Part shown: piece by piece, positions 36,151 to 64,000 of the stretch
How the letters are laid out: every line of letters starts with the position of its first letter
Position numbering within the stretch: the first letter of the stretch is position 1
Source of the DNA: Calycina herbarum
Lineage: Eukaryota; Ascomycota; Leotiomycetes; Helotiales; Pezizellaceae
Assembly (NCBI GenBank): GCA_001414485.1
Contig: LLEY01000075.1
Span: forward strand, 229,165 to 293,164
Direction: 5' to 3'
DNA length: 64,000 nucleotides
Position numbers and translations under genes: made by a program
Notes under the pieces: generated by a model
Databases searched by the model: none
Told to the model about the DNA's origin: nothing
What the model saw: only the letters and a program-made list of their open reading frames with translations

Positions 36151-37551
36151 CTCTTCTTTCCTTTCCTTTCTTTTTCTTTATATATATATCCCCTTTGTCT
36201 TTCTCTAATTCTATAAACTAATTAAGAATAAGAGCTGTTCCGAAAGTAGAGCTTCTCTTTAAACTGTCTCTTATAAATTAGCTTACTCGTTTACTATCCC
36301 TGTAGCCTAGAGCACCTCTCTAGCGTCATTTGCCCTCTTTTAGGACTCTTTTAGGACTTAGCCTACGCGAGCTATTCTCCGCTTAACGTTAAATAGAAAT
36401 AAATAAATATCTCTCTTTCCTAGTCGTCTTCTTTGATATTACGTCTCTTTCTATATATATTAACTTATTCTATTCTTATAAATCTATCTTATAGTAGTTC
36501 TAGAAATCTCTAATTAATATAGAAACTATTTTAATTTCTTTAGATTTATTAGATCTCTCTATTATCTCTATACTTTCTATCTTAATCTCTCTTTTTATAG
36601 ACGAGTATATACTCGAATATTATAATCTCTTATTTATACTCTTATTTATAAGCTATAGTATAGATATTAATAAGACGCTATTTAACCTCTTATTAGATTC
36701 TAAAGTAGATTATATAAATATAGTAGTATTTCTCTATATATAAGTATCTTATAAAAATACTAACTCGTCTAGGGTTTACTAGCTTATTACGTCTTTCTCT
36801 AGTAAGGATTGTCTTTTAATTAATATAATAGTAGTATTTACTTCTCTATTATCAGATATAGCTTATACTTAGAACCTTCCTAGTAAATACTTCTATTAGG
36901 CTTGTCTTCTTACTATTAATTACAGGTCTATAATCGGTTCGATTTCGTAAGTATATATCTATTTCTATAGCTTTGTCTTAGAATTCTATTAGAAGATTAG
37001 CTTAGTTAAGTAAAGCTCTTATACTTACCTTAGTAGTTTAGATAGCCCTCTTAGCTAGTCTATTCTAATATAATAAAGTAATAATAGTAGATTATTCTTT
37101 AACACCTATATTAACTTACTATTCCTTAATAGCTTTTAAGAGTTCTAATATATATATATAATTCTTATACTACGTAGACCGTAGACTAAGCTCTAAGAGC
37201 AGGCAGTACTTCTACTAGTTATTATTTAAGATATAGGTAAAAATAAACTCTAAAGACGAGTTAAAGTAGTCTTATAATATCCTACCCTACTTCTCAGCTC
37301 TAAGGTTTATCTAGGTAGCTGTTCCCGCTCTTCTATAACCGGTGTAATACTTCTCTCTATCTCTACAGATCTCTACTATCTATTCAACAGCTAGAAAAGG
37401 CACCTTTATATACTTTAAAAGCTATATCTAAATATAAGGTGTCTATTCCTCTATTAAACAAGCCTGTTATTATCTAATACTTCTCTCTTATTCCTACTTA
37501 CTACTAACTAATCCCTTAGTCTTATATTTGTATTTCCTTCTTTAATATATA
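36151..37551. other. AT-rich RIP-like tract without identified content
   Basis: TA-rich sequence with stops in all frames. I could not recognise a transposon domain, inverted ends or a gene. It probably derives from repeats too mutated to read. Confidence 0.5.
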
Positions 37552-38092
37552 TATACCTTTAAGTATTATTCTCTCTATTCTAAGAGAGAGGTAAGTAGTC
37601 CCTTCTAAATCAGAGTATAAGACGCCTCGATAGAGTTTCTCTTTCTAAGATACGTATACTCTAAATACTCTCTTTACTACCTATCTAGTAGTAGGTAGAG
37701 ATAAGGCACCTACTCTAGAGTCGAGGTCCTACGCTTATCGAGCCTTCGGTAGAATATATTATATATTATTATTATAATCTATAAATTAGTCCTACGTAAT
37801 CTCTGCCTTATTCTTAACTTAAACTTAGTAATACTCTTAAATTTCCTCCTCTGATATACGTATACTTTCGAGTATTATTCTCTCTATTCTAAAGAAGAGG
37901 TAAGTAGTCTCTTCTAAATCAGAGTATAAGACGCCTCGATAGAGTTTCTCTTTCTAAGACACGTATACTCTAAATACCCTCTTTATTACCTATCTAGCAG
38001 CTGGTAGAGACGAGGCACCTACTCCGAGGTCGAGGTCCTACGCTTATCGAGCCTTCGGTAGAATATACTATATATTATTATTATAATCTATA
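37552..38092. repeat. Two ~232-bp direct repeats, 309-bp period
   Basis: The copies at 37552-37783 and 37862-38092 match closely, from AGTATTATTCTCTC through a TCGAGCCTTCGGTAGAATAT block to TAATCTATA. The spacer is about 78 bp. They could be LTRs of a collapsed element or a tandem duplication. Most differences are transitions, so RIP has acted on both. Confidence 0.8.
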
Positions 38093-52579: not shown

Positions 52580-54004
52580 TCAGGTCTTCTCTCTAAGTTT
52601 CCATCCTGTTCGAGCTACTCTTGCCACTGTCAACGCCACTGCTCCCAACATCATGCTCGTCCCTGCCCACACCTGCGCGCCCAAGTAACGACCTCCATCC
52701 CTATCAATTAGAGCACCAGCGATCGGACTACCAGTCAAACTCGCAAACGCAACCACACTAAACACCATTCCCATTCGTGTTCCCAGGTTACTAAGATCTG
52801 TCGTCAAAGCAGCCAGTGAGACTGCGAAAAGCGACTGGATTGCCGAAGCGACAAGTCCATAAAAGGCTGTGTATACGTACAGTCCACTATGGGAATGGCC
52901 CACCCCAATCCAACAGTATGAGACGGCAGCAACAGCAGCTGCGGTAGGAATGGCGGTGTTGAGTGGACCGAGCCAACGGGAAGCGATGAATCCTGGTAGA
53001 ATACGGCCGGGAATACCTATGCCGTTGGCAATGAGAAGGATGTTTATTGAGTCCAGAGAACTGAAATTGGCGAAGTTGGAACCGTAAAGATCCATCTACT
53101 GGTATGTCAGTACTTGTATTAACAGAGGATAGCAGGGGAAAACAGACGTAGTAGAAGGCAAAGTAGACAGCCCAGTATATGAGAAAGAAACCGAGAACGA
53201 AAAATATATAAGGGATTTCGGTGAAAGCTCTCCAGTCCAGAAGTGGTCCTGATGTCCTAGGAGGGATCCGTACTCGAAGGAGGAGGTTGATTACGATGGC
53301 AACGAAGAGTGTAACGAATGCCATGGATCTCATTGTCCACCCGAACCCTTTTTATGTTAACAAAATATCAGATGCGACAATTTCGAAGAACTCCTACCAA
53401 TTCGAGGAAGAAGATGCTGCACCATAACCGGGTACACCAATCCCCCAGATCCAGCCCCAGAGGCAATGATGGCAACAGCAAATGATTTCTTCTCTTTGAA
53501 GTAGGAAGATGGCACCGAAAGTCCCGGCATGTAAAGAATCCCCATCCCCAATCCAATGCATATGCCCTGAGACAGAAAAACCTGATAGTACTCCGTCGAC
53601 AAACTTGTCATGAAAAGACCCAAGACGATCAGCAAAGTCCCCGCGAGGACAGCTTCATGCACGAGCCCAGCATCACTTGCTCGACCAGAGATAGTTCCTA
53701 CGAGAAGGAGTGTGAATATTTGTATCGTCCCAATCCAGGAAACAGTTGAGTGACTGGAACGGAGGGTCTCTTCATAATGGGATTGGAAGATTCCGAAGCT
53801 GGTGATGAGACCCCAAGTTATGAAGCACATCAAATGACCGGCCAGAACTTGGAGCCAAGCTGTAGTGCCTCCATCTGGAGGTGGACCCGGGTTTGTTGTT
53901 GGAAGAGGTGGGAAGATGCCGTATTTTCTAGGGGGTTTGGTTTGAAAGGGTTTGTTTTCTTCCAAGTACTGAAGAGAACCATTTGTCGGGGTGGTATCTG
54001 ACAT
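52580..54004 (-). CDS. MFS transporter, monocarboxylate (MCT-like) family
   Basis: Exons 54004-53398, 53347-53148 and 53095-52580 give 440 aa with consistent phases (introns 50 and 52 bp). The start has the family's PPDGGTTAW block just before the first membrane helix, and the chain alternates hydrophobic helices as in a 12-helix major facilitator. GRASDAG after helix 2-3 corresponds to the MFS loop motif. Relatives move monocarboxylates, riboflavin or secondary metabolites across the plasma membrane. It stands 612 bp from the peptide-precursor gene on the same strand, so export of the peptide product is plausible but inferred. The second intron's GTCTGT donor is weak; the boundary there is the least certain part. 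Confidence 0.85.
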
Positions 54005-54616
54005 TTCCGTCTTCGATAGTCAAGTGTTCATGTGAATTGGTAGTAGAAATAGTTATGGTAGAGTTCAGATTTAGGGGTATAGCTTTTCATACCTCGAGAC
54101 GCCACCAACATATACCCATGTATGTCTTACAACAATTACTTTCAGCACTTGGACTAGGGTTACAGTTGCCAGGATAGGTTGAGGTGAGTAATGGGGCGAG
54201 TGAAGTGACAGCCTAAAGAGGAGGAGGGTCTGGGTTACGAACTCGGAGGATCATGCTGTGTAGCGATCGATAATGAGGCGATTGAAACACATAGATTGAT
54301 CCCTTCGAGTTACTTTGACCGACTAACTCTCATACTGCTCTTATTTTATACCTATAAGATGATGCTAGTCGAACAAGCACCGGGAAAAGCCCGATATGAT
54401 GGTTTTATCACCAACAATAGCATACTCAGAGATCACCGAGTCACGTTTACTTTGAACAGAAGGTGGTTCAGTAGACACTTGAAGTATTCGCTACAGAAAT
54501 TTTCCTAACAGAGCATAGATTCCAAGCTACTGATCTCCTGAAAACAGGAAATAACCTTCGATGCAGCCTTCAAAATTCAGCTTGAATCCGTTTACCGAAA
54601 GCAAAAGTGACACTGA

Positions 54617-54880
54617 CTAGTAAGTCTCTGCATATGAGCTCGCCTCCGTCTCCCCAACCTGAAGCATCGGGTCGGTCTCAAAGTTTGCTCTCTTTTCAGC
54701 ATAGGAACTGCTTTCAACCTCGCCAACTTGGAGCATGGGATCGGTTTCAAAGTCTTGCTACATTAGTAACGTTCTCATTTTCACTTGTAACTTATGATTT
54801 TACTTACTAGCCGGCTTAGCAACCGGAATTGCTACACTGACAGCAGTCAAGAGAATAACAATGAAGAGGTGTAGGAGCAT
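54617..54880 (-). CDS. Secreted repeat-peptide precursor with Kex2 site (candidate RiPP precursor)
   Basis: Two exons (54880-54808 and 54753-54617) encode 69 aa. The 54-bp intron has a GTAAGT donor, a TACTAAT branch-like site and a CAAG acceptor. Residues 1-17 are a hydrophobic signal peptide. The rest is two near-identical acidic repeats, each ANFETDPMLQVGE followed by a Ser-rich end with SYAE. Residues 45-46 (Lys-Arg) between them form a Kex2 protease site. This layout, signal plus repeats cut by Kex2, is that of fungal dikaritin precursors and of pheromone-like peptides. Each repeat ends in a tyrosine that could be oxidised. The UstYa gene 1.6 kb away supports a RiPP role; the MFS gene is on the other side. 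The gene is too short for ordinary ORF calling. The splice is backed by repeat identity: the join creates the Asn that begins repeat 1 exactly as in repeat 2. Confidence 0.75.
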
Positions 54881-54998
54881 TGTGGTTGAAGAGTGTATGA
54901 GAAGTCCGTTAAAGTGAGAAAGCAGATTTTGGTGTTCTTATTTTTGCAAGGTTATGAATCTCTCCTTAGACATGCTAGACAACAGTGGGTCCCTGCCA

Positions 54999-55006
54999 TA
55001 TTTATA
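54999..55006 (-). promoter_or_regulatory. TATA box of the peptide-precursor gene
   Basis: TATAAATA on the minus strand lies about 120 bp before the precursor ATG. The ATG itself sits in a good fungal context (CACAATG). Promoter strength is not known. Confidence 0.45.
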
Positions 55007-55806
55007 CTTCTAATGAACTTCAGTATATTTAGTATACCGGAATTCGATTTTTGACTGCCGATCGGTACTTCACTCGCTAACTGATGAGTCTGCATTTCAA
55101 GTAAGCAGACCTGGATCGGCATGGCAATGTATCCCAGACGATACTGGAAAGAAATGCGCAACATCTCAGTGAGATTATTTGCGATTATTCTATTCAAAAT
55201 CGATGATCCGATAGTGTGCCAGGTCAACTTCCTAATCAGAACATGTTCTTTTCAGAAGCCAATCAAGAACAGAAACACACCTGCCAGATGACCGCAGAGC
55301 TGATTTAGCCTCATACCTGGTCTCACAAATGTTGTTATTTTCCTTATCGAAGGTATGTCCGCGTTCTCAGAACCAACATAATGATAGTCGTGTTGCTCAA
55401 CGGTGACCGTGCATATTAAGTCAGGCGCCACTCGGCGGATCACCTCGTTTCAACCAATCCAACCGCCAAGGGAATCGTGAGATCTAATTATCCGCTGCAA
55501 CGTGAATGCGGCTCAGCGGCACAACTTATCATTTTCCAATGAATTGAATATGGCGTGCAGCCAATGTTGGAATTCACAGGCTCCAATCTTTCTTCTCGGC
55601 GAATGGGGGGATTTTGAAATTAAGCGACTCAAGTGCCGGTCCGTTCAGGGGTTTGATCTATATCAAAGTTCTATGTTATGCTTGTAAATGTTTAGTTTCT
55701 CACTCCGGAATGAATCTGTCCGTCTCTCGCCGTGTCAGGATCTACACACCCTTCTTACCCCATTTGTGCAAAAACTTTTCAGCTCCATCTTTTGAAGTGC
55801 GAATCT
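55007..55806. other. Intergenic DNA between precursor and UstYa genes
   Basis: No supported gene on either strand. It separates the divergent peptide-precursor and oxidase genes and should hold part of their promoters. Confidence 0.5.
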
Positions 55807-55950
55807 GTAAGAATCCCGAGCTTTGCTCTGAGTACACCCCCTCCATCCATTACTCTAGAAACTTAACACAATCTCAACTATTATGCAAAAGCATCTAGGA
55901 GAATAGAGAAATCAGTTTCCCCATTCTTCTAAACCTTCTCAGAGAATGAA
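55807..55950. repeat. Intron-like repeat copy A, related to the intron at 58828
   Basis: These 144 bp align without gaps to 58828-58972, the first three quarters of an intron in the rhodopsin-like gene, at roughly 75% identity by eye. Both begin GTAAGAA(T/C)CCCGAGCTTT and end in CAGAGAAT/CGGAGAAT. Here the copy lies in intergenic DNA, not in a recognised gene. Confidence 0.72.
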
Positions 55951-55974
55951 TCTCGTTTTCCTAGACCCTTTCGC

Positions 55975-56024
55975 ACAGTATTTGCGAAAGCGGGTGTACT
56001 CGGAGCAAAGCCTATGTTTCTTAC
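55975..56024 (-). repeat. Inverted partial copy of the intron-like repeat
   Basis: Read on the minus strand from 56024, this begins GTAAGAAACATAGGCTTTGC, matching the start of copies A and B over about 38 bp. It then runs into a small hairpin (CTTTCGCA/TGCGAAAG). With copy A it forms a head-to-head pair. Confidence 0.6.
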
Positions 56025-56467
56025 ATATATAGGTAGGTGTACAGCGAGCTGAGGATCGTACAGGGGACAATCCTGAGAAGAAGGGATAGGTCAGAGAATC
56101 TACTATCTCGTCGTAAATTAACCATCCAGTCATAAACCTGAGACCACAGGCACTCTCCAATCTGACTCAAGCATGCAGACTACAATGGTGAGCGAAGCAT
56201 TCCCTATATGCAGTCCTCGTTCGTTGTCGTGCATTGTAGAACTACCCGAAATCCAGCCATTCGCATATCATTTCGGCAGATGTGACGCAGCATGATTTTT
56301 CGAGGAAGCACCCGCTCTCGTCACAATCGAGTTCTGAGATTGAAAGCTTTTACTCTTCGGTCCCCTAAACAAAAAAGAGTTTTGAATCCTTTCTTGAATG
56401 ATTCCTCCTTGCTCCAACTAGTTTTTGAAACTTCACTCAATAACTCTTTCTGTATGGGTTCATAGTT

Positions 56468-57410
56468 ATGGCCTCTAATATGTTTCAACCATCTCTTTAC
56501 TCTCCCCTAGCAAGCGAGGAATCGATTTCCCCACTACTCGACAACGCGAAAGTGGGCCCGAAAAATCGCGGAAACGTGCTTAGATACCTACACTGGGTAA
56601 TTCATGCTGTCAATGGGGTTATAATCCTAGCATTGTCACTTGGAATGCTGAGAACCTCGCAACTGAGCCGAGAAAGGTGTTGGGATATGTTCAATTACTA
56701 TTGTGAGAAATCCGTAGTCTATGACTCTGAAGGCGTGTGGTTCAGATACTGACTTAAATACCGTGATACAGCCCCGGTGAATGAAGCAGTTGCTCCTAAT
56801 TCCTACGTCCATCAACAATTTAATGGCTCTCTCTGGTATAAAAGTCCCTTCAAAGGACCTCCTACACAAGAAGTCGAAGAAGCTTGGTACGATATCATGA
56901 AATGTGAGTATTTCACTTCGCCGTATACTTTATTTCCTCAACTAATTCCGCACAGTCGGCATGATCAGTGTTTCCAAAGAAGACATCGAGAAAATTCAGC
57001 ACCCAGACTGGTCAGCACAATTCCCACCAGAAGCAGGAGGAGGCTACATAGCAGCAACCATCGGTTCGCACCAGGTCCATTGTCTCCACTACATCTGGCA
57101 AGACCATTACATGTCCTATTTTCCCAAGACTCAAGATAAGAAGGAGCGAGTACCAGAGTTGTACGAGTTGCACTATGAACATTGTGTGGATTACATCCGC
57201 CAAAGTCTCATGTGCCAGTTTGATACTGGTATTATTCCATATAACTGGGTACTTGACCATCAAAATCCTACACCGAATGCTAATACACATCACAAGTGTG
57301 TGAATTGGGATGCATTGCAGGATTGGTTGGAGGATCGGAAGGTGGTTATGCCAGAAGGATTTCAGTGGAAGCAGCCGGAAGATGCTGTTTCCCTGGGATG
57401 GAATCCGTGA
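56468..57410 (+). CDS. UstYa family (DUF3328) oxidase
   Basis: Three exons (56468-56702, 56772-56903, 56956-57410) encode 273 aa, the usual size, with GTGAGA and GTGAGT donors and closed phases. A short cytosolic N-terminus is followed by one membrane helix (about residues 41-62). The lumenal domain has both diagnostic motifs: HQVHC (His161-Cys165) and HYEHC (His195-Cys199), the latter within EHCVDYIRQSLMC. UstYa proteins catalyse oxidative ring closure or other oxidation of ribosomal peptides in ustiloxin-type pathways; other members act in small-molecule pathways. It is divergent from the precursor gene at 54617-54880, which makes a RiPP role likely. Known dikaritin clusters often have two such genes; only one is visible here. 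Confidence 0.92.
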
Positions 57411-58446
57411 TAGGTTGTGATTTTCATGTAGATCAATGAAATGCCACTTCTTTGCATCGTCGCAGAATCCATCGTCAAGTTCCAGTTGAAAAGTGTGCCA
57501 ACCATAATCTCGCTGTTACCAATTAATTTCGTAACACAATAGTCGCTCTAACTTACCAACCTAGGTATATTTGGGGGAGAAATAGACTCATGAGTCATAA
57601 AATCTTTTGCTTGTCTCAAACCCTTCTGCACCAGAAAGGAGTTCAGGCTTTCGTCACTCCGTCCCCTCTCTCGCCGTGGACATCAAAAGTGACAGGAAAT
57701 AGCTCCCATTATTCCACCTTTCTAGAATAATGCAAACCATTAACCAAAACATTTTCAAACAATATAAGTAATTATTCTAAACAGTCAGAATAACAACAGA
57801 TATTGACCCAGACCCTTGATTGTCCTAAGGGTTCGAGCAACGAGAGTTACGTCTTATTCTCAATTGCTTTTCTTGATCATCGCTTACTAAAGACAAGGAT
57901 ACTTCCATCATCAGCGTTGTCAAGACAAGCATCTCAACATCTTTGTGTCACCTTCCTATCTCCCCACACCCTCATTGGCAAAGGCTTGATCCTTCCCACT
58001 CATGCATTAATTGCCCGCCAAGATAGCACCATGATTGGTGGCACATCACTGCTTCCCCGCCTTGTGACCTACTGATTTGGCTACCGGGTTTCTTCAGCCA
58101 TACAAAAGCCATGTACCGTGAAGTAGACAATTAAAAAACAAGGAGATCGACAGCATCTGGTGCAGGTTGAGGGTAAAAGTATTCCACGCCACCTCTCAAC
58201 ATAACGGCAAGAAAGCCTTCCGCCTCCCCCCGCATATGCATATTTCCCCTTCCGGCAAACGATCAACCTTAACAATCTATCTCACCACACCACCAGACAC
58301 CTCATAGCCATCCCCGAAACGTGCCTTTCTCATTCCCCACGTTTTTAATAAGCCTCGTTGTTGGTGACTGATGCACATTCGTCACTCTCTCTGTGTTTTC
58401 ATCTCTCCACTCTTTTAGTACCATCGAATAAGCATCACGATTTACG
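57411..58446. other. Intergenic, no gene seen
   Basis: One kilobase between the UstYa gene and the rhodopsin-like gene. No convincing coding frame on either strand; pyrimidine-rich stretches near 58.2-58.4 kb are consistent with a promoter. Confidence 0.5.
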
Positions 58447-60072
58447 ATGGCAGGAATTGCAACAACTGGAAGCGCCATCGCCATCGGATTCTGCTTTCCC
58501 ATCATTTGTGGTGTTCTTGTACTTTTGAGGTTCCTGACGAGATATCATCATAATGTTGAACGATATGTTGATGATTGGTTTTGTCTGGCTGCCTGGGTAA
58601 GTTGACTAAAGTCTTGAAAAGCATGGATACTGTAAACTGACTTCTCCAGTTCTGTTTGACGGGATGTTGTGCCTCTCTTTTGACCGGTAAGTTGGTTTTG
58701 GTGCCTTGACGAAATTTCTGTTTTACACTGCTGATAGAATTCGATAGGCGTCTTCAAGAATGCCTTCGTTGACGAACCATTGAGCGGCCCAAACAATGTC
58801 ACGGAGCAACAGCAACTCTTAGCCCAAGTAAGAACCCCGAGCTTTCCTCTGTGTGCATCCCCTCCCTCAATTGCCCTAGAAATTCTTATACACTTTCAAC
58901 CATTGTCCGAGAGCATTTCAAAGAATCGAGAAGTCAATTTCCCGATTCTCCTATACCTTCCCGGAGAATAAGTGGAAACAAAAACCAACAAGAAAAAACC
59001 ACTAAGCCAACACCAGGTAACCGGCGCCCTAGTAATCTTCTGGATGGGAGCAAACACCTTCATAAAACTAACAGTCCTCTTCTTCTATCGCCGAATATTC
59101 CTAGGAAAATGGTTCAACATCTGCAGCTGGTCCCTAATCGGCCTCTCTGTCCTCTGGTTCATATACGCTGTTCTCTCTTGGCTCCTCTACTGCGGTACAC
59201 ACTTCAAAGAGGATTTCGAGGGAGGATGGTTGGTGTGCCCACTTTGGGGATTCCAGATCCAGATGGGAGTTTTTGCTCTGGATAGTTTTATTGATTTCTT
59301 TCTGCTCGTTCTGCCGATGCCTTTTGTGAGTATAGAATGGATAAAAGGGAAGGGGAGTGCTGATTGAACGAAATAGGTTTGGAGATTGCATTTGGATCTT
59401 AAGAAGAAGATTGCTCTTTGTGTGGTCTTTTTGCTTGGTGGCTTGTAAGTTTTCCTCCTCCGGGCTCAATCATTCGGTGCTGATATTCCAAGTGCCTTTG
59501 TCGCAGGTCTCAACAACACCATAATCCAGCTTGTTTATCTCACCAATCCTTCCTTGGTGGCAAGCGGTGGAGGCGCGAACTTCTTCCAAGGTACCCTATC
59601 CCCTACTCCCCCCTTCCCATCCATCCTAGTTGGGTTTTATAGAAATTAACAAAACCAAGGCTCATCACTCCTCTTCTCAAACTGGCCAGCTATCGAAATC
59701 GGAGTTGGACTCATAGCCTGCAACCTCCCATCCCTCTCATTCCGCGCCGTCCACGTCTTGCCACGAGCCATTCGCCGCGGATTCGATATCTCCTTGTCAA
59801 AGATCCAGCACGCGGCAGCAGTGATAACGCTGCGTTCTGGATCTCGACATACTAGCCCGACGCATTCGAATCGGAGCCCATATCAGACAGTTGACCCTAC
59901 TAGACCAGCAGGATCTGGAGGCTCCGATATCACCGGAGCATCAAAACCATCAAAGGGGAATTTTGGAAGTGGATCGCTGTCCGGAAAAGGCTCGATGTCG
60001 GGGAAGAGTGGCGTGGAGGAGGTCCAGCTTGAGAGTCTAGGAAAGGGGAGGAGTGGAGGAGAGCCACGTTGA
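58447..60072 (+). CDS. Rhodopsin-like integral membrane protein (fungal PTH11/SAT20-type family)
   Basis: Seven exons (58447-58596, 58650-58686, 58748-58827, 59017-59325, 59377-59444, 59493-59590, 59660-60072) encode 384 aa. The protein has about seven membrane helices, with VDDWFCLAAW at the end of helix 2, an extracellular loop and WxGANTFIKL...FYRRIF as in the fungal rhodopsin-like domain. A Ser/Gly-rich cytosolic tail of about 90 aa follows. Such proteins are common near fungal gene clusters and may sense or signal, but function is unknown. The third intron is 189 bp, three times its neighbours, and belongs to a repeat family. The gene is tail-to-tail with the FAD monooxygenase (72 bp apart). 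Exons 2 and 3 are short; the rest of the model is firm. Confidence 0.82.
58828..59016 (+). repeat. Intron 3 of the rhodopsin-like gene, carrying repeat copy B
   Basis: This 189-bp intron (GTAAGA...CACCAG) contains repeat copy B at 58828-58972, starting exactly at the splice donor. The copy's 3' part holds an imperfect hairpin (GATTCTCC...GGAGAAT). The remaining 44 bp to the acceptor are not in copy A. Confidence 0.75.
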
Positions 60073-60144
60073 TTTGATGTGGTATGAATGATTGATATGG
60101 AGATAAAAGTCTGATGGAAGCAAACTTGTAGTAATTAGAAGTTC

Positions 60145-61329
60145 TCAAATACCAATTTCCTGATACTCGAACCAATCTCCTCCTTTCCAGAACTTCTTCC
60201 CTCCTTCGTATGAGTGTTCGATTTTTTCCTTCGCTCTTTGTGCCATCCTCTCTTCAAATTCTTCTATACTCTGTTGGACAGTTCCGTGCTGGCCGATGGT
60301 CTCTGCCAGATCCGCCGCATTGAGAATTGCTGCATTACCACCGGAGCCACCCATTGGACTCATCGCATGAGCCGAGTCACCAAGAAGAGTTACTTTGCCC
60401 CTCTGGTTGGACGACCGGATCTCGATGTCTGGTTTACTAGACAGGACTGGGACACACGTCGAAAGATCGTGAGATGCCTCGCTGAACACCAATTGTAGGT
60501 CAGAGTGCCAATATTTCGTGATGTTGAGCAATAGTTCTTTTCTCTCTTCCGCCGTCTTGGGTAGGGGAAGACCACCAGGCGCTGACTCGGTACACAAAGC
60601 CCAGTATATGTAGTCCTGACAATCAGGAAGCCAGTATTCCGAAGACTCCGCAACACTTTTCTTCCAGACCATGGGTTCGAGAACAACCTGCACATTGGCT
60701 TCTTTGTCAATGGCCATAAACCAAGTAAGCTGGTCTTCCTTCAAACAAGCTCGAAGACTTTCCGTCAATAATGTCCTACCCCAAATAACCCATCTCTCGA
60801 GATCGAGAAGCCGACGATCGGGTTGCAATTGTTGACGAACACGACTTTTGATCCCATCGGCACCCACAAGAAAACATCCAGTTGCCCAAGAACCGTCGGA
60901 AAAGGAGACGCATACTTTGTTGTCTATCACCTCATAGGAAGCAAATTCTTTCTCATACTCGATTGCGTCTTCGATGCCGAGCATCATTACTCTTCGTAGC
61001 CAGGTTCGGTCGATTGGCATACCTTGGGCATCCGAGGCAATTGTTGGGGATGGGAATACGAATTCCTTTGCATCGACATATCGTGGTTGAAAGTTTCCCC
61101 TCTCTGCAGCAGTACGGCGGAAGAGGGATTTGGATGGAGGCAGGAGGATGGAGTTAAGTGCCGTCAATGTTTCGGGGGATATGCGGAGACGGTGACCTTG
61201 GGAGGAGTGGGATAGAGGATGTCTCTCAAAGAGGCGGAAGGGGATTGATCTGAGACGAAGGCCTTGGGCGAGCGTAAGTCCAGAAATGCCAGCGCCCATA
61301 ATCAAAACCGGCGAAGTAGAAGACGCCAT
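60145..61329 (-). CDS. FAD-dependent monooxygenase (UbiH/PHBH type)
   Basis: A single exon encodes 394 aa, starting at the ATG at 61329; an upstream in-frame extension has no ATG in the conserved place. The FAD-binding GAGISG is at residues 12-17. The DG motif reads VGADGIKSRVR and the GD motif GDSAHAMSPMGGSGGNAA near residue 320, so the fold is complete. It belongs to the class-A flavin hydroxylases, which oxygenate aromatic or polyene substrates using NAD(P)H. It lies at the end of the UstYa region, tail-to-tail with the membrane-protein gene. A role in tailoring the peptide product is possible; known dikaritin flavoenzymes are often of another class, so this is weakly supported. Confidence 0.88.
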   Translation of the reverse strand: MASSTSPVLIMGAGISGLTLAQGLRLRSIPFRLFERHPLSHSSQGHRLRISPETLTALNSILLPPSKSLFRRTAAERGNFQPRYVDAKEFVFPSPTIASDAQGMPIDRTWLRRVMMLGIEDAIEYEKEFASYEVIDNKVCVSFSDGSWATGCFLVGADGIKSRVRQQLQPDRRLLDLERWVIWGRTLLTESLRACLKEDQLTWFMAIDKEANVQVVLEPMVWKKSVAESSEYWLPDCQDYIYWALCTESAPGGLPLPKTAEERKELLLNITKYWHSDLQLVFSEASHDLSTCVPVLSSKPDIEIRSSNQRGKVTLLGDSAHAMSPMGGSGGNAAILNAADLAETIGQHGTVQQSIEEFEERMAQRAKEKIEHSYEGGKKFWKGGDWFEYQEIGI

Positions 61330-61819: not shown

Positions 61820-62759
61820 ACACATTCCAAGGCCCACCACCACCCTCGATCCACCCTTCTCGAAAGACTACATCACGACCGTCCCGATAATCTATCCTGC
61901 CGTAATCCCTCTCCGCGATGGTCACAATCTCCTGCGACCAGGAGACGACATCGACTCCTACGTCCGCCTCGAGGTGACCACGCGGCGGCTCGATAAAATG
62001 TGGAAATACCTCCACTACGCAGGACTCCCACGCCATGCGCGACCCCTCCATCGACAAATCCTCATGGGCCGAAGGATAATAATCACCGAAGACGTGGACG
62101 AACATCTCGTCTGGCATCGCGGGAGGATATTCATGAAGCCCCTGCCGATGGCTTCTCGACAAAGATTCCTGGCAGGAAAACCTCTGCGTCGATGAGGATA
62201 TATATAAAGCAGCCTGCGGATTCCTGCTATCCTACACATACATGGCTGATATCTCGAGAAAGCGATTTCGTACTCGGGAAGGAGCTACATCTTCTTCTCG
62301 ATGGTTTGAACTGGGAACACTGGATCAATTTTCAAAATGGATTTTTTGAGAAAATTGACGCGGAATCCCTGGTCCAGGTCTCGAAGAGATATCAGTATGG
62401 GGGAACTGAGATTGACTCGTCTCAGTCAAATATATAGGTTTGCACCCTCCGTGACTTCCTTGCGGAATTTCGTTGTGGGATATTTTGTGCCTTCTACTTG
62501 GTATCAAGAGTTCTTCAAACTTCATTTTGGTTGGCTTTTGGCTGTCTTTGTCTATTTTACCGTTACGCTTGCTGGTATGCAGCTTGGATTAGCGCAAGAG
62601 GATTTACAGCAAAATAAGGCTTTCCAACAAGCCTCGTATGTGTTGGTGGTGTTTTCTTTGGTGTTTGTTATAGCAAGTATACTTGCGATTGTGTTGACGT
62701 GGTTTACCTTGACGGTTTTCATTTCGTGTCTGTGCAGCTTTACCATCGCAAGGTTATGA
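61820..62759 (+). pseudogene. DUF6601 membrane protein gene with three frameshifts
   Basis: Similarity to a fungus-wide membrane-protein family (DUF6601 type) is continuous but changes frame three times. The first segment, with VRLEVTTRRLDKMWKYL and GLPRHARPLHRQ, runs to about 62150. The second, with SWQENLCVDEDIYKAACGF, runs to about 62240. The third, with SRESDFVLGKELHLLLDG, runs to about 62400. The last, with GELRLTRLSQIYRFAP and two C-terminal membrane helices, ends at 62759. Each change is a one-base shift (for example in the GGGGG run near 62400). No introns explain them. The 5' end and start codon were not found. Sequencing error cannot be excluded. Confidence 0.72.
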
Positions 62760-63540
62760 AAGCTCGACAGGGAAAGATTTCTAGGACTGGAACTGAAGTC
62801 TATATCAGGAAGCATAATATGTAAATATAGGATCTCAGATTCAGCTAGGTAGAATATTTCGTATCCTTCGCTATGGCATTTAATTTTCGTAAGAGCCTAT
62901 TACGTTCACCTTAGAGAATATTATACGAGAAACGCTAAAATGATTACTTCAGAAGACTTGTAACAATGAAGAGAAGCGAAAGCCCATTACTCTACATAAT
63001 CACTTTGATTATTCGAGGCTTTTCAAAAAAGAGAAAAAAGAAGAAAAATCCAGCTGTACGTAAAACGATGAACCAGGCTCTAACACTTTTGATTACAGAC
63101 GAGACACACGAGGTCCCTCGGTCGTTCCTCCCTCTGATCCCAACTCGGCCTCAAATGATATCACAACCTCGATCCTGGGAGACGAGACTCGAGGTTGCTC
63201 CTTCCCTTCTTGCAAGACACAACAACAACGAAGCAGTTCTTGCCGCAAGTGCGCCCACATTTCTCGCGCGAGGAAGGAACGACCAAGACCAACGATGCTA
63301 ATTCAAATCTTCAAAACCCTCGCGCTCCCCCGTCCCTCTCTCTCTTCCTTTCTTCCTCTTCACACAAACTTCTTCTCCATCAACAACCCGACTAGCCCCC
63401 AAAACCCCTCCATTACACGCACTCCCAAGGCTTCTACACGCGAGACTGGAAAGGCCAACAGCTGAGGCCAATCCCTCAGTCTGATCCCGAGGTAGCTCAG
63501 AATACTCACATAAAATCTAAATTTCTAATTCTGTCGACCT
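62760..63540. other. Region without supported gene
   Basis: Normal-composition DNA. Open frames up to about 110 codons are low-complexity and lack recognised domains or splice continuity. Confidence 0.45.
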
Positions 63541-64000
63541 TTCACGAATAAATTGTCCTAGTTGACTTTATAAAACAATACGTGTAATAGTACACCTGTT
63601 AGAAACTCTGGATTTGACGAAGATGTAAAGATTTCCATTACTCTATAATCATTGAAAATCATTGAACAATATTGAAATATAAATAAACAGGAAGGTGTAA
63701 AATACACAGACTTAGTTTTATCTTAGCCTGCTTTGAAGTACTTAATTATTCAAGTAGATTATTCTAGTAAAATATTATAGATTATTGAAACAAGAGTTAA
63801 AAATTGAGACTTTAAGTATTTTAACCCTGTTCAATTATCTCAGTTATTCTAAACCTATAACGTGGTTTATCAGCGAGTCGATCATATCAGCGAGTCGATC
63901 ACTAAAAATACATACAAAAAACGTCTGTGCAACCCTAGTAAAAATCTGTAATTCTTAATAAAAATTAATAAAATTAAAGAATCTACTTTATTACTATATA
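63541..64000. other. AT-rich flank
   Basis: Composition becomes AT-rich again to the window end. A 17-bp unit is repeated in tandem at 63868-63884 and 63885-63901 (TATCAGCGAGTCGATCA). This may be the edge of another mobile element; no coding content is visible. Confidence 0.5.

What the first reader, a model, noticed from the sequence alone, without database searches (positions are those of the whole stretch)
52580..61329. Candidate undescribed dikaritin-type RiPP cluster: Kex2 repeat peptide, UstYa oxidase, MFS exporter, FAD monooxygenase
Seen: a secreted precursor with two near-identical repeats split by Lys-Arg, a UstYa-family protein with both HxxHC motifs, an MFS transporter and a flavin monooxygenase within 9 kb. 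Known: ustiloxin, phomopsin, asperipin and epichloecyclin pathways pair Kex2-cut repeat precursors with UstYa proteins. Inference: these genes form one pathway. The repeat unit (ANFETDPMLQVGE... ending SYAE) is not one I recognise, and with only two repeats and one UstYa gene the set is unusually small.
Basis: partly seen in the sequence, partly recalled or inferred. Interest (0 to 1): 0.9.

Follow-up and report, generated by a model that had tools for sequence, protein, structure and literature searches.

The report
Conserved three-gene fungal peptide cassette
This fungus carries three neighbouring genes, found linked in whole or in part in other fungi, for a small protein with two near-identical peptide copies, a UstYa-family enzyme and a transporter; together they likely make and export an oxidised peptide whose sequence is almost unchanged in the relatives found.

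Summary
54880-54617(-) encodes a 69-aa, predicted secreted precursor with two units split by Lys-Arg; 18 of 20 aligned residues agree while 11 codons differ by one silent base. 56468-57410(+) encodes a UstYa protein with both HxxHC motifs, 54004-52580(-) an MFS transporter. The precursor is a conserved family: 35 other rows from Leotiomycetes, Sordariomycetes, a lichen assembly and metagenomes. Orthologues share contigs: 13 named genomes hold at least two of the three genes on one contig (two hold all three, with consecutive gene numbers in Hypoxylon sp. CI-4A); lower-ranked MFS rows do so in 0 of 96. The core cassette is therefore MFS-precursor-UstYa. The FAD monooxygenase is not shown to belong: a rhodopsin-domain gene lies between, and no search was left to test it. 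New detail: unit 1 has no Kex2 site before it but an in-frame X-Pro/X-Ala run (19 of 22), which predicts dipeptidyl trimming to the same N-terminus as unit 2. Expression, cross-link and function are untested. Both published surveys of such precursors required at least three repeats; text searches found no report of this one.

The parts
54617..54880 (-). Precursor gene, 69 aa: predicted signal peptide, X-Pro/X-Ala run, unit 1, KR, unit 2; one 54-nt intron (54807-54754)
54695..54811 (-). Unit 1 ANFETDPMLQVGEVESSSYAE (spans the intron); Kex2-type KR follows at 54694-54689
54620..54688 (-). Unit 2 ANFETDPMLQVGETEASSYAETY, runs to the stop codon
56468..57410 (+). UstYa/DUF3328 protein, 3 exons, 273 aa, one predicted membrane helix, motifs HQVHC (57069-57083) and HYEHC (57171-57185)
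   Evidence: model of the orthologue P0037
52580..54004 (-). MFS transporter, about 440 aa, two introns; 440-aa model 54004-53398, 53347-53148, 53095-52580
54881..56467 (.). Divergent intergenic region (1,587 bases) between precursor and UstYa starts; holds an introner-like repeat copy at 55807-55947
58447..60072 (+). Fungal rhodopsin-domain gene (PF20684) between UstYa and the monooxygenase; not shown to belong to the cassette
60145..61329 (-). FAD-dependent monooxygenase (PF01494), 394 aa; membership untested

Best explanation
The window carries a three-gene cassette (MFS transporter, two-unit predicted secreted precursor, UstYa-family protein) whose orthologues share contigs in 13 other named ascomycete genomes (all three in two, two of three in eleven), and it likely makes and exports an oxidised, probably tyrosine-cross-linked peptide of about 21-23 residues. 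Predicted route: the precursor enters the secretory pathway by its signal peptide; the single-pass UstYa protein, with its catalytic domain in the lumen and two copper ions held by the two HxxHC motifs (as others showed for CctR), would oxidise the Tyr of SSYA or join it to another side chain; Kex2 would cut at KR before unit 2; for unit 1, which has no KR before it, signal peptidase and then a Ste13-type dipeptidyl aminopeptidase would remove the in-frame pairs IP-VA-KP, so that both units start at the same A-N-F; the MFS protein would move the product out of the cytosol or into a vesicle. Shown: gene models, repeats, silent substitutions, family, contig linkage, processing-site pattern. Inferred: every enzymatic step, the cross-link, transport and function.
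For: Silent divergence of the repeats. Precursor family with 35 rows besides the window's own. With no motif asked for, the 38 stretches that follow a KR or RR in 35 of 36 sequences read F 37, E 37, T 36, D 36, P 36, M 35, L 37, Q 33, V 36, G 35, and Tyr of SSY 36 (one of the 38 is an upstream artefact of a long gene model). Shared contigs: 14 contig lengths occur in at least two of the three homologue lists, 13 with the same named organism and one 9,808-base metagenome contig; MFS rows 1-24: 10 share, rows 25-120: 0 of 96, two of which (P0155, P0240) belong to the orthologous group by tree. Consecutive numbers 316337 UstYa, 316338 precursor, 316339 MFS in Hypoxylon sp. CI-4A. UstYa tree: all 8 linked rows lie outside a 29-row group (100/97) that holds none. 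MFS tree: all 11 linked rows lie in one 27-row group (100/100) on a long stem. Nearest UstYa paralogue in the own genome 35% identical, best outside match 72%. In-frame X-Pro/X-Ala run of two or more before the first unit in 19 of 22 full-length rows, in 1 of 22 when shifted by one residue. One Kex2-type P-domain match and DPPIV-N matches at two loci in the genome. DUF3328 as binuclear copper enzyme: PMC12435403, passages read.
Against: No transcript, peptide or enzyme data. Linkage is at contig level except in CI-4A, since no fungal contig outside the own genome could be fetched; 'same contig' was read from equal contig lengths, and some of those contigs exceed 1 Mb. In Hymenoscyphus albidus, which holds the closest relatives of precursor and MFS, the precursor (10,381-base contig) and MFS (194,412-base contig) lie on different contigs, possibly by assembly. 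Nine of 20 named precursor rows have no partner on the same contig in the lists, and 14 of the first 24 MFS rows have none. collects only proteins that share exact five-residue words with the query, so the near-invariance is partly selected. No tyrosinase or S41 peptidase match lies on this contig, so release of a short core has no local enzyme.
Confidence: 0.76

Rival explanations
1. The precursor is a plain Kex2-processed signal peptide (pheromone-like, linear); UstYa and MFS are neighbours with another role.
For: Strong sequence constraint, two units, alpha-factor-like dipeptide leader; all tailoring is inferred.
Against: Linkage to one UstYa lineage in several genera; per PMC7329392 (abstract) almost all KEPs annotated as alpha-factors or pheromones lack DUF3328 neighbours.
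Confidence: 0.13
2. It is a typical dikaritin mycotoxin cluster of four or more genes in which the FAD monooxygenase tailors the product.
For: Flavin monooxygenases occur in known ustiloxin clusters (recalled); the gene is 2.7 kb from UstYa.
Against: A rhodopsin-domain gene lies between; no second DUF3328 gene, tyrosinase or S41 peptidase match on the contig. Linkage of the monooxygenase in other species was not tested.
Confidence: 0.12
3. UstYa here does not cross-link but hydroxylates, chlorinates or otherwise oxidises the peptide (a variant of the main reading, so its odds overlap with it).
For: The family is implicated in halogenation, hydroxylation, macrocyclisation and isomerisation (PMC12435403, passages).
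Against: The unit has a nearly invariant Tyr, the residue cross-linked in ustiloxin, phomopsin and asperipin (PMC7329392 section 7; PMC9233826 passages); this does not exclude other chemistry.
Confidence: 0.3

Closest known systems
Asperipin-2a pathway (Aspergillus)
   Same: A single DUF3328 protein and a Kex2-repeat precursor with Tyr (PMC7329392 section 7; PMC9233826 passages)
   Different: No sequence comparison was made; here two units of 21-23 residues, nearly invariant between genera and classes, with an X-Pro/X-Ala leader before unit 1
Ustiloxin / phomopsin pathways
   Same: Secreted Kex2-repeat precursor near DUF3328 genes
   Different: Those have 2 and 5 DUF3328 proteins and need a tyrosinase (PMC7329392); here one DUF3328 locus and no tyrosinase or S41 peptidase match on the contig
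Kex2-processed repeat proteins, KEPs (PMC7329392, PMC6339444)
   Same: Signal peptide, repeats, Kex2 sites; 22% of KEPs have DUF3328 neighbours
   Different: Both surveys require at least three repeats; most members here have two
Yeast alpha-factor maturation
   Same: Kex2 plus dipeptidyl aminopeptidase (Ste13) trimming of X-Ala pairs (recalled)
   Different: Here the X-Pro/X-Ala run lies between signal peptide and unit 1, and a UstYa gene is linked

Membership tests
Dikaritin (UstYa-type RiPP) | DUF3328/UstYa enzyme with two HxxHC motifs (class-defining in the 2021 definition cited in PMC12048977, passages) | tested here: met
Dikaritin (UstYa-type RiPP) | Precursor with N-terminal leader and repeated cores separated by Kex2 sites | tested here: met
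   signal peptide by eye
Dikaritin (UstYa-type RiPP) | Precursor and UstYa genes linked | tested here: met
   window itself; six other contigs hold both a precursor row and a UstYa row, by equal contig lengths
Dikaritin (UstYa-type RiPP) | Oxidative side-chain cross-link in the product | not testable with these tools
   needs mass spectrometry
Dikaritin, older five-gene definition (as cited in PMC12048977, which adds that later cases lack some of the genes) | Tyrosinase gene in the cluster | tested here: not met
   45 PF00264 matches in the genome, none on contig C353
Dikaritin, older five-gene definition (as cited in PMC12048977, which adds that later cases lack some of the genes) | Several DUF3328 genes | tested here: not met
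   one PF11807 locus on C353
Dikaritin, older five-gene definition (as cited in PMC12048977, which adds that later cases lack some of the genes) | Transporter or peptidase | tested here: met
   MFS linked; no S41 peptidase match on C353
Dikaritin, older five-gene definition (as cited in PMC12048977, which adds that later cases lack some of the genes) | Methyltransferase | not tested
   only 11 different proteins or ORFs of the window went through Pfam; none matched one
KEP as defined in PMC7329392 | At least 3 tandem repeats of at least 8 residues between Kex2 sites | tested here: not met
   two units here; three in Cytospora mali P0002
Fungal alpha-pheromone | Homology to alpha-pheromone precursors | tested here: inconclusive
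   none of the 36 rows has a Pfam domain, and no name shown says pheromone (many rows have no name); no direct comparison made

The most novel reading that the evidence does not exclude
A single UstYa-oxidised peptide, FETDPMLQVG....SSYA, has been kept nearly letter for letter in Leotiomycetes, Sordariomycetes and (from a lichen assembly) Lecanoromycetes, with the enzyme-transporter pair also in a dothideomycete: a conserved oxidised fungal signal rather than a fast-changing toxin, released by Kex2 at one unit and by dipeptidyl trimming at the other, and missed because surveys ask for three repeats.
Probability: 0.35. Interest if true: 0.82.

Novelty: new variant of a known kind. Interest (0 to 1): 0.63.

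Why it matters
Kex2-repeat precursors are described as highly diverse, with most types found in one genus only (PMC7329392, section 6 read), and those paired with UstYa enzymes are best known as toxins. A precursor whose ten-residue block hardly changes between classes would point to one shared product with one shared target or receptor, and offers a small, three-gene system in which the substrate rules of a single UstYa enzyme could be tested. It also shows a blind spot: precursors with two repeats are excluded by the filters of both published surveys.

Tried and rejected
Scans of viral contigs with the precursor alignment and of genome contigs with the UstYa alignment gave no relatives, so no fungal contig outside the own genome could be read, and adjacency rests on contig lengths and gene numbers.

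Horizontal transfer between Xylariales and Helotiales: the UstYa tree puts the window beside Rostrohypoxylon (90/92, under the star threshold), while the MFS tree puts the window with Hymenoscyphus albidus, outside the 23-row group that holds all Sordariomycete rows of that tree. Unresolved, not claimed. The AU test (Sordariomycetes as one clade, p 1.8e-67) was badly posed, because Zopfia and unnamed metagenome rows sit inside that group; it is not used. On the MFS tree the label 'linked' is not clustered beyond chance (341 of 500 shuffles as low), most rows sampled being from the orthologous group.

A first count of unit conservation (61 units) used a pattern that itself fixes F, D, L and A; it is replaced here, which asks for no motif. 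One search had also counted P0017, the window's own exon 2; leave it out.

A second UstYa gene on the 9,808-base metagenome contig was considered and dropped: P0129 and P0060 read as exons 1-2 and exon 3 of one gene.

Structure: the AlphaFold2 model of orthologue P0037 has mean pLDDT 69; it places the motifs on helices 158-173 and 189-206 and one long helix 38-75, in keeping with the CctR description, but is too weak for a fold search, which was not run. No solved structure matches by sequence at E <= 0.01.

Not done: monooxygenase linkage (no protein search left), co-expression, direct comparison with known dikaritin precursors (none fetched), reading of survey supplements. Sampling: the UstYa tree used 41 of 93 listed rows plus the window, the MFS tree 36 of 120 listed rows (489 passed the threshold) plus the window.
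Full report
What is there. On the minus strand 54880-54617 is a two-exon gene for a 69-residue protein, MLLHLFIVILLTAVSVAIPVAKP-ANFETDPMLQVGEVESSSYAE-KR-ANFETDPMLQVGETEASSYAETY. The acceptor CAAG, four bases after a TAG, is the one that keeps the frame, and the annotated protein of Hymenoscyphus albidus (P0001) shows the same junction. Between the two units 13 of 20 codons differ; 11 differ by a single silent base and two are replaced outright. That pattern means old repeats held by selection on the protein, so the gene is very unlikely to be a chance reading frame.

Neighbours. 56468-57410(+) is a three-exon UstYa gene (273 aa, PF11807 E 1.1e-50) with HQVHC and HYEHC. 54004-52580(-) is an MFS transporter. 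Beyond UstYa come a fungal-rhodopsin-domain gene (58447-60072), an FAD monooxygenase (61329-60145) and a DUF6601 gene. The genome (68.8 Mb, 379 contigs, unnamed) has 71 exon-level UstYa matches at E <= 0.001, only one on this contig. The nearest paralogue of this UstYa in the own genome is 35% identical, while the best outside match, from Hypoxylon sp. CI-4A, is 72%. The only precursor matches in the own genome are its two exons here.

A new precursor family. The protein search gave 36 rows at E <= 1, among 36 candidates, one of them the window's own exon 2. Named organisms include Hymenoscyphus and Clarireedia (Leotiomycetes), Cytospora and many Xylariales (Sordariomycetes) and, from a lichen metagenome assembly, Letrouitia (Lecanoromycetes) (classes checked for five species; other placements recalled). 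To measure conservation without asking for the motif I took every KR or RR and read the residues after it: 38 stretches from 35 of 36 sequences (one, in P0014, is an upstream artefact; three too short were left out). They read A 37, then N 25, H 6, Y 3, I 3, then F 37, E 37, T 36, D 36, P 36, M 35, L 37, Q 33, V 36, G 35; four variable positions follow, then S 35, S 36, Y 36. Because the search collects only proteins that share exact five-residue words with the query, this is an upper estimate, and more distant relatives may exist. Sixteen of 22 full-length rows have exactly two units, three have three and three have one intact unit.

Linkage. The homologue lists carry the length of each protein's contig. 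Of all lengths in the three lists (36 precursor rows, 93 UstYa rows, the best 120 of 489 MFS rows), 14 occur in at least two lists; in 13 the organism name is the same, and the other is a 9,808-base metagenome contig with precursor and UstYa. Two contigs (Hypoxylon NC1633, Hypoxylon CI-4A) hold all three; in CI-4A the gene numbers are consecutive, 316337 UstYa, 316338 precursor, 316339 MFS, the order found in the window. Among MFS rows, 10 of the first 24 (66-85% identity) share a contig with a precursor or UstYa row and 0 of the other 96 do; two of the 96, P0155 and P0240, belong to the same group by tree. Of the first 12 UstYa rows 7 share; of the other 81 only the two exon rows of the 9,808-base contig do. 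Of 20 named precursor rows, 11 have a partner on the same contig. Counting by hand the species that show both a precursor and a partner from the orthologous ranks, it is 11 of 12; the exception is H. albidus, whose precursor contig is only 10,381 bases. Viridothelium (Dothideomycetes) and Xylaria bambusicola show UstYa with MFS, but no precursor row.

Trees. In the UstYa tree (42 rows) 29 rows form a group (100/97) with no linked row; all 8 linked rows, the window included, are among the other 13, one of which (Dothistroma) is a long branch of unsure place. In the MFS tree (37 rows) all 11 linked rows lie in one group of 27 (100/100) on a stem of 2.14 changes per column. So the cassette appears to use one lineage of each protein.

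How it likely works. KR or RR stands before the next unit in 35 of 36 spacers, the exception being one ER in Clarireedia. Unit 1, however, has no dibasic site before it. Instead, counting back from its first residue in steps of two, the family shows X-Pro or X-Ala pairs: a run of two or more in 19 of 22 full-length rows, against 1 of 22 when the frame is shifted by one residue; Pro stands directly before the unit in 18 of 22. In the window, signal cleavage after ...SVA would leave IP-VA-KP and then ANFETD, the same N-terminus that Kex2 would give unit 2. The three exceptions are two Cytospora rows (P0002; and P0003, whose first unit is cut in the gene model) and Clarireedia. This predicts a Ste13-type dipeptidyl aminopeptidase; the genome has DPPIV-N matches at two loci and one P-domain (Kex2-type) match. 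DUF3328 proteins are described as membrane-anchored, binuclear copper enzymes with the HxxHC pair in the organelle lumen (PMC12435403, passages read); this protein has the same order of parts. Tyr of SSYA is the likely target, by analogy only.

What is known. Asperipin-2a also uses a single DUF3328 protein (PMC7329392 section 7). Ustiloxin and phomopsin need a tyrosinase as well (same section); here no tyrosinase and no S41 peptidase match lies on the contig, although some accepted clusters lack a peptidase too (PMC12048977 passages). The two large surveys of Kex2-repeat precursors require three or more repeats (PMC7329392 section 13 read; PMC6339444 passages read), so two-repeat members are outside them; three-repeat ones such as Cytospora may be in their supplements, which I could not read. 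A Hypoxylaceae survey notes that RiPP detection depends on similarity to known precursors (PMC8403587 passages). Text searches for the repeat and for six locus tags found no paper, and I saw no report of it in the listings of six topic searches, four of them cut to the best 5-40 rows. The library holds only openly licensed papers.

Limits. Nothing here shows transcription, processing, modification, transport or function. The FAD monooxygenase and rhodopsin-domain genes remain unassigned.

Noticed in passing
window 58828-58969 and 55807-55947: Introner-like repeat: 77% identical over 142 bases, both copies starting exactly at a GTAAG donor, one as an intron-like stretch in the rhodopsin-domain gene, one upstream of UstYa. 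The own genome holds 14 further places at 70-80%, 7 of them starting at the same base (a lower bound; the copy at 55807 is not among them).
   Followed up: partly
G000 contigs C250, C248, C357, C329, C371: The genome is rich in UstYa genes: 71 exon-level PF11807 matches, several in groups on one contig, which may mark further peptide clusters.
   Followed up: no
window 63300-64000 (end of contig C353): The window is the last 64 kb of a 293,164-base contig; its end is AT-rich with no telomere-like repeat seen by eye.
   Followed up: no
window 61821-62759: DUF6601 gene (PF20246) in at least three reading-frame pieces next to the monooxygenase.
   Followed up: no
window 37532-38092: 309-base tandem repeat, 1.8 copies, 90% matches.
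   Followed up: no
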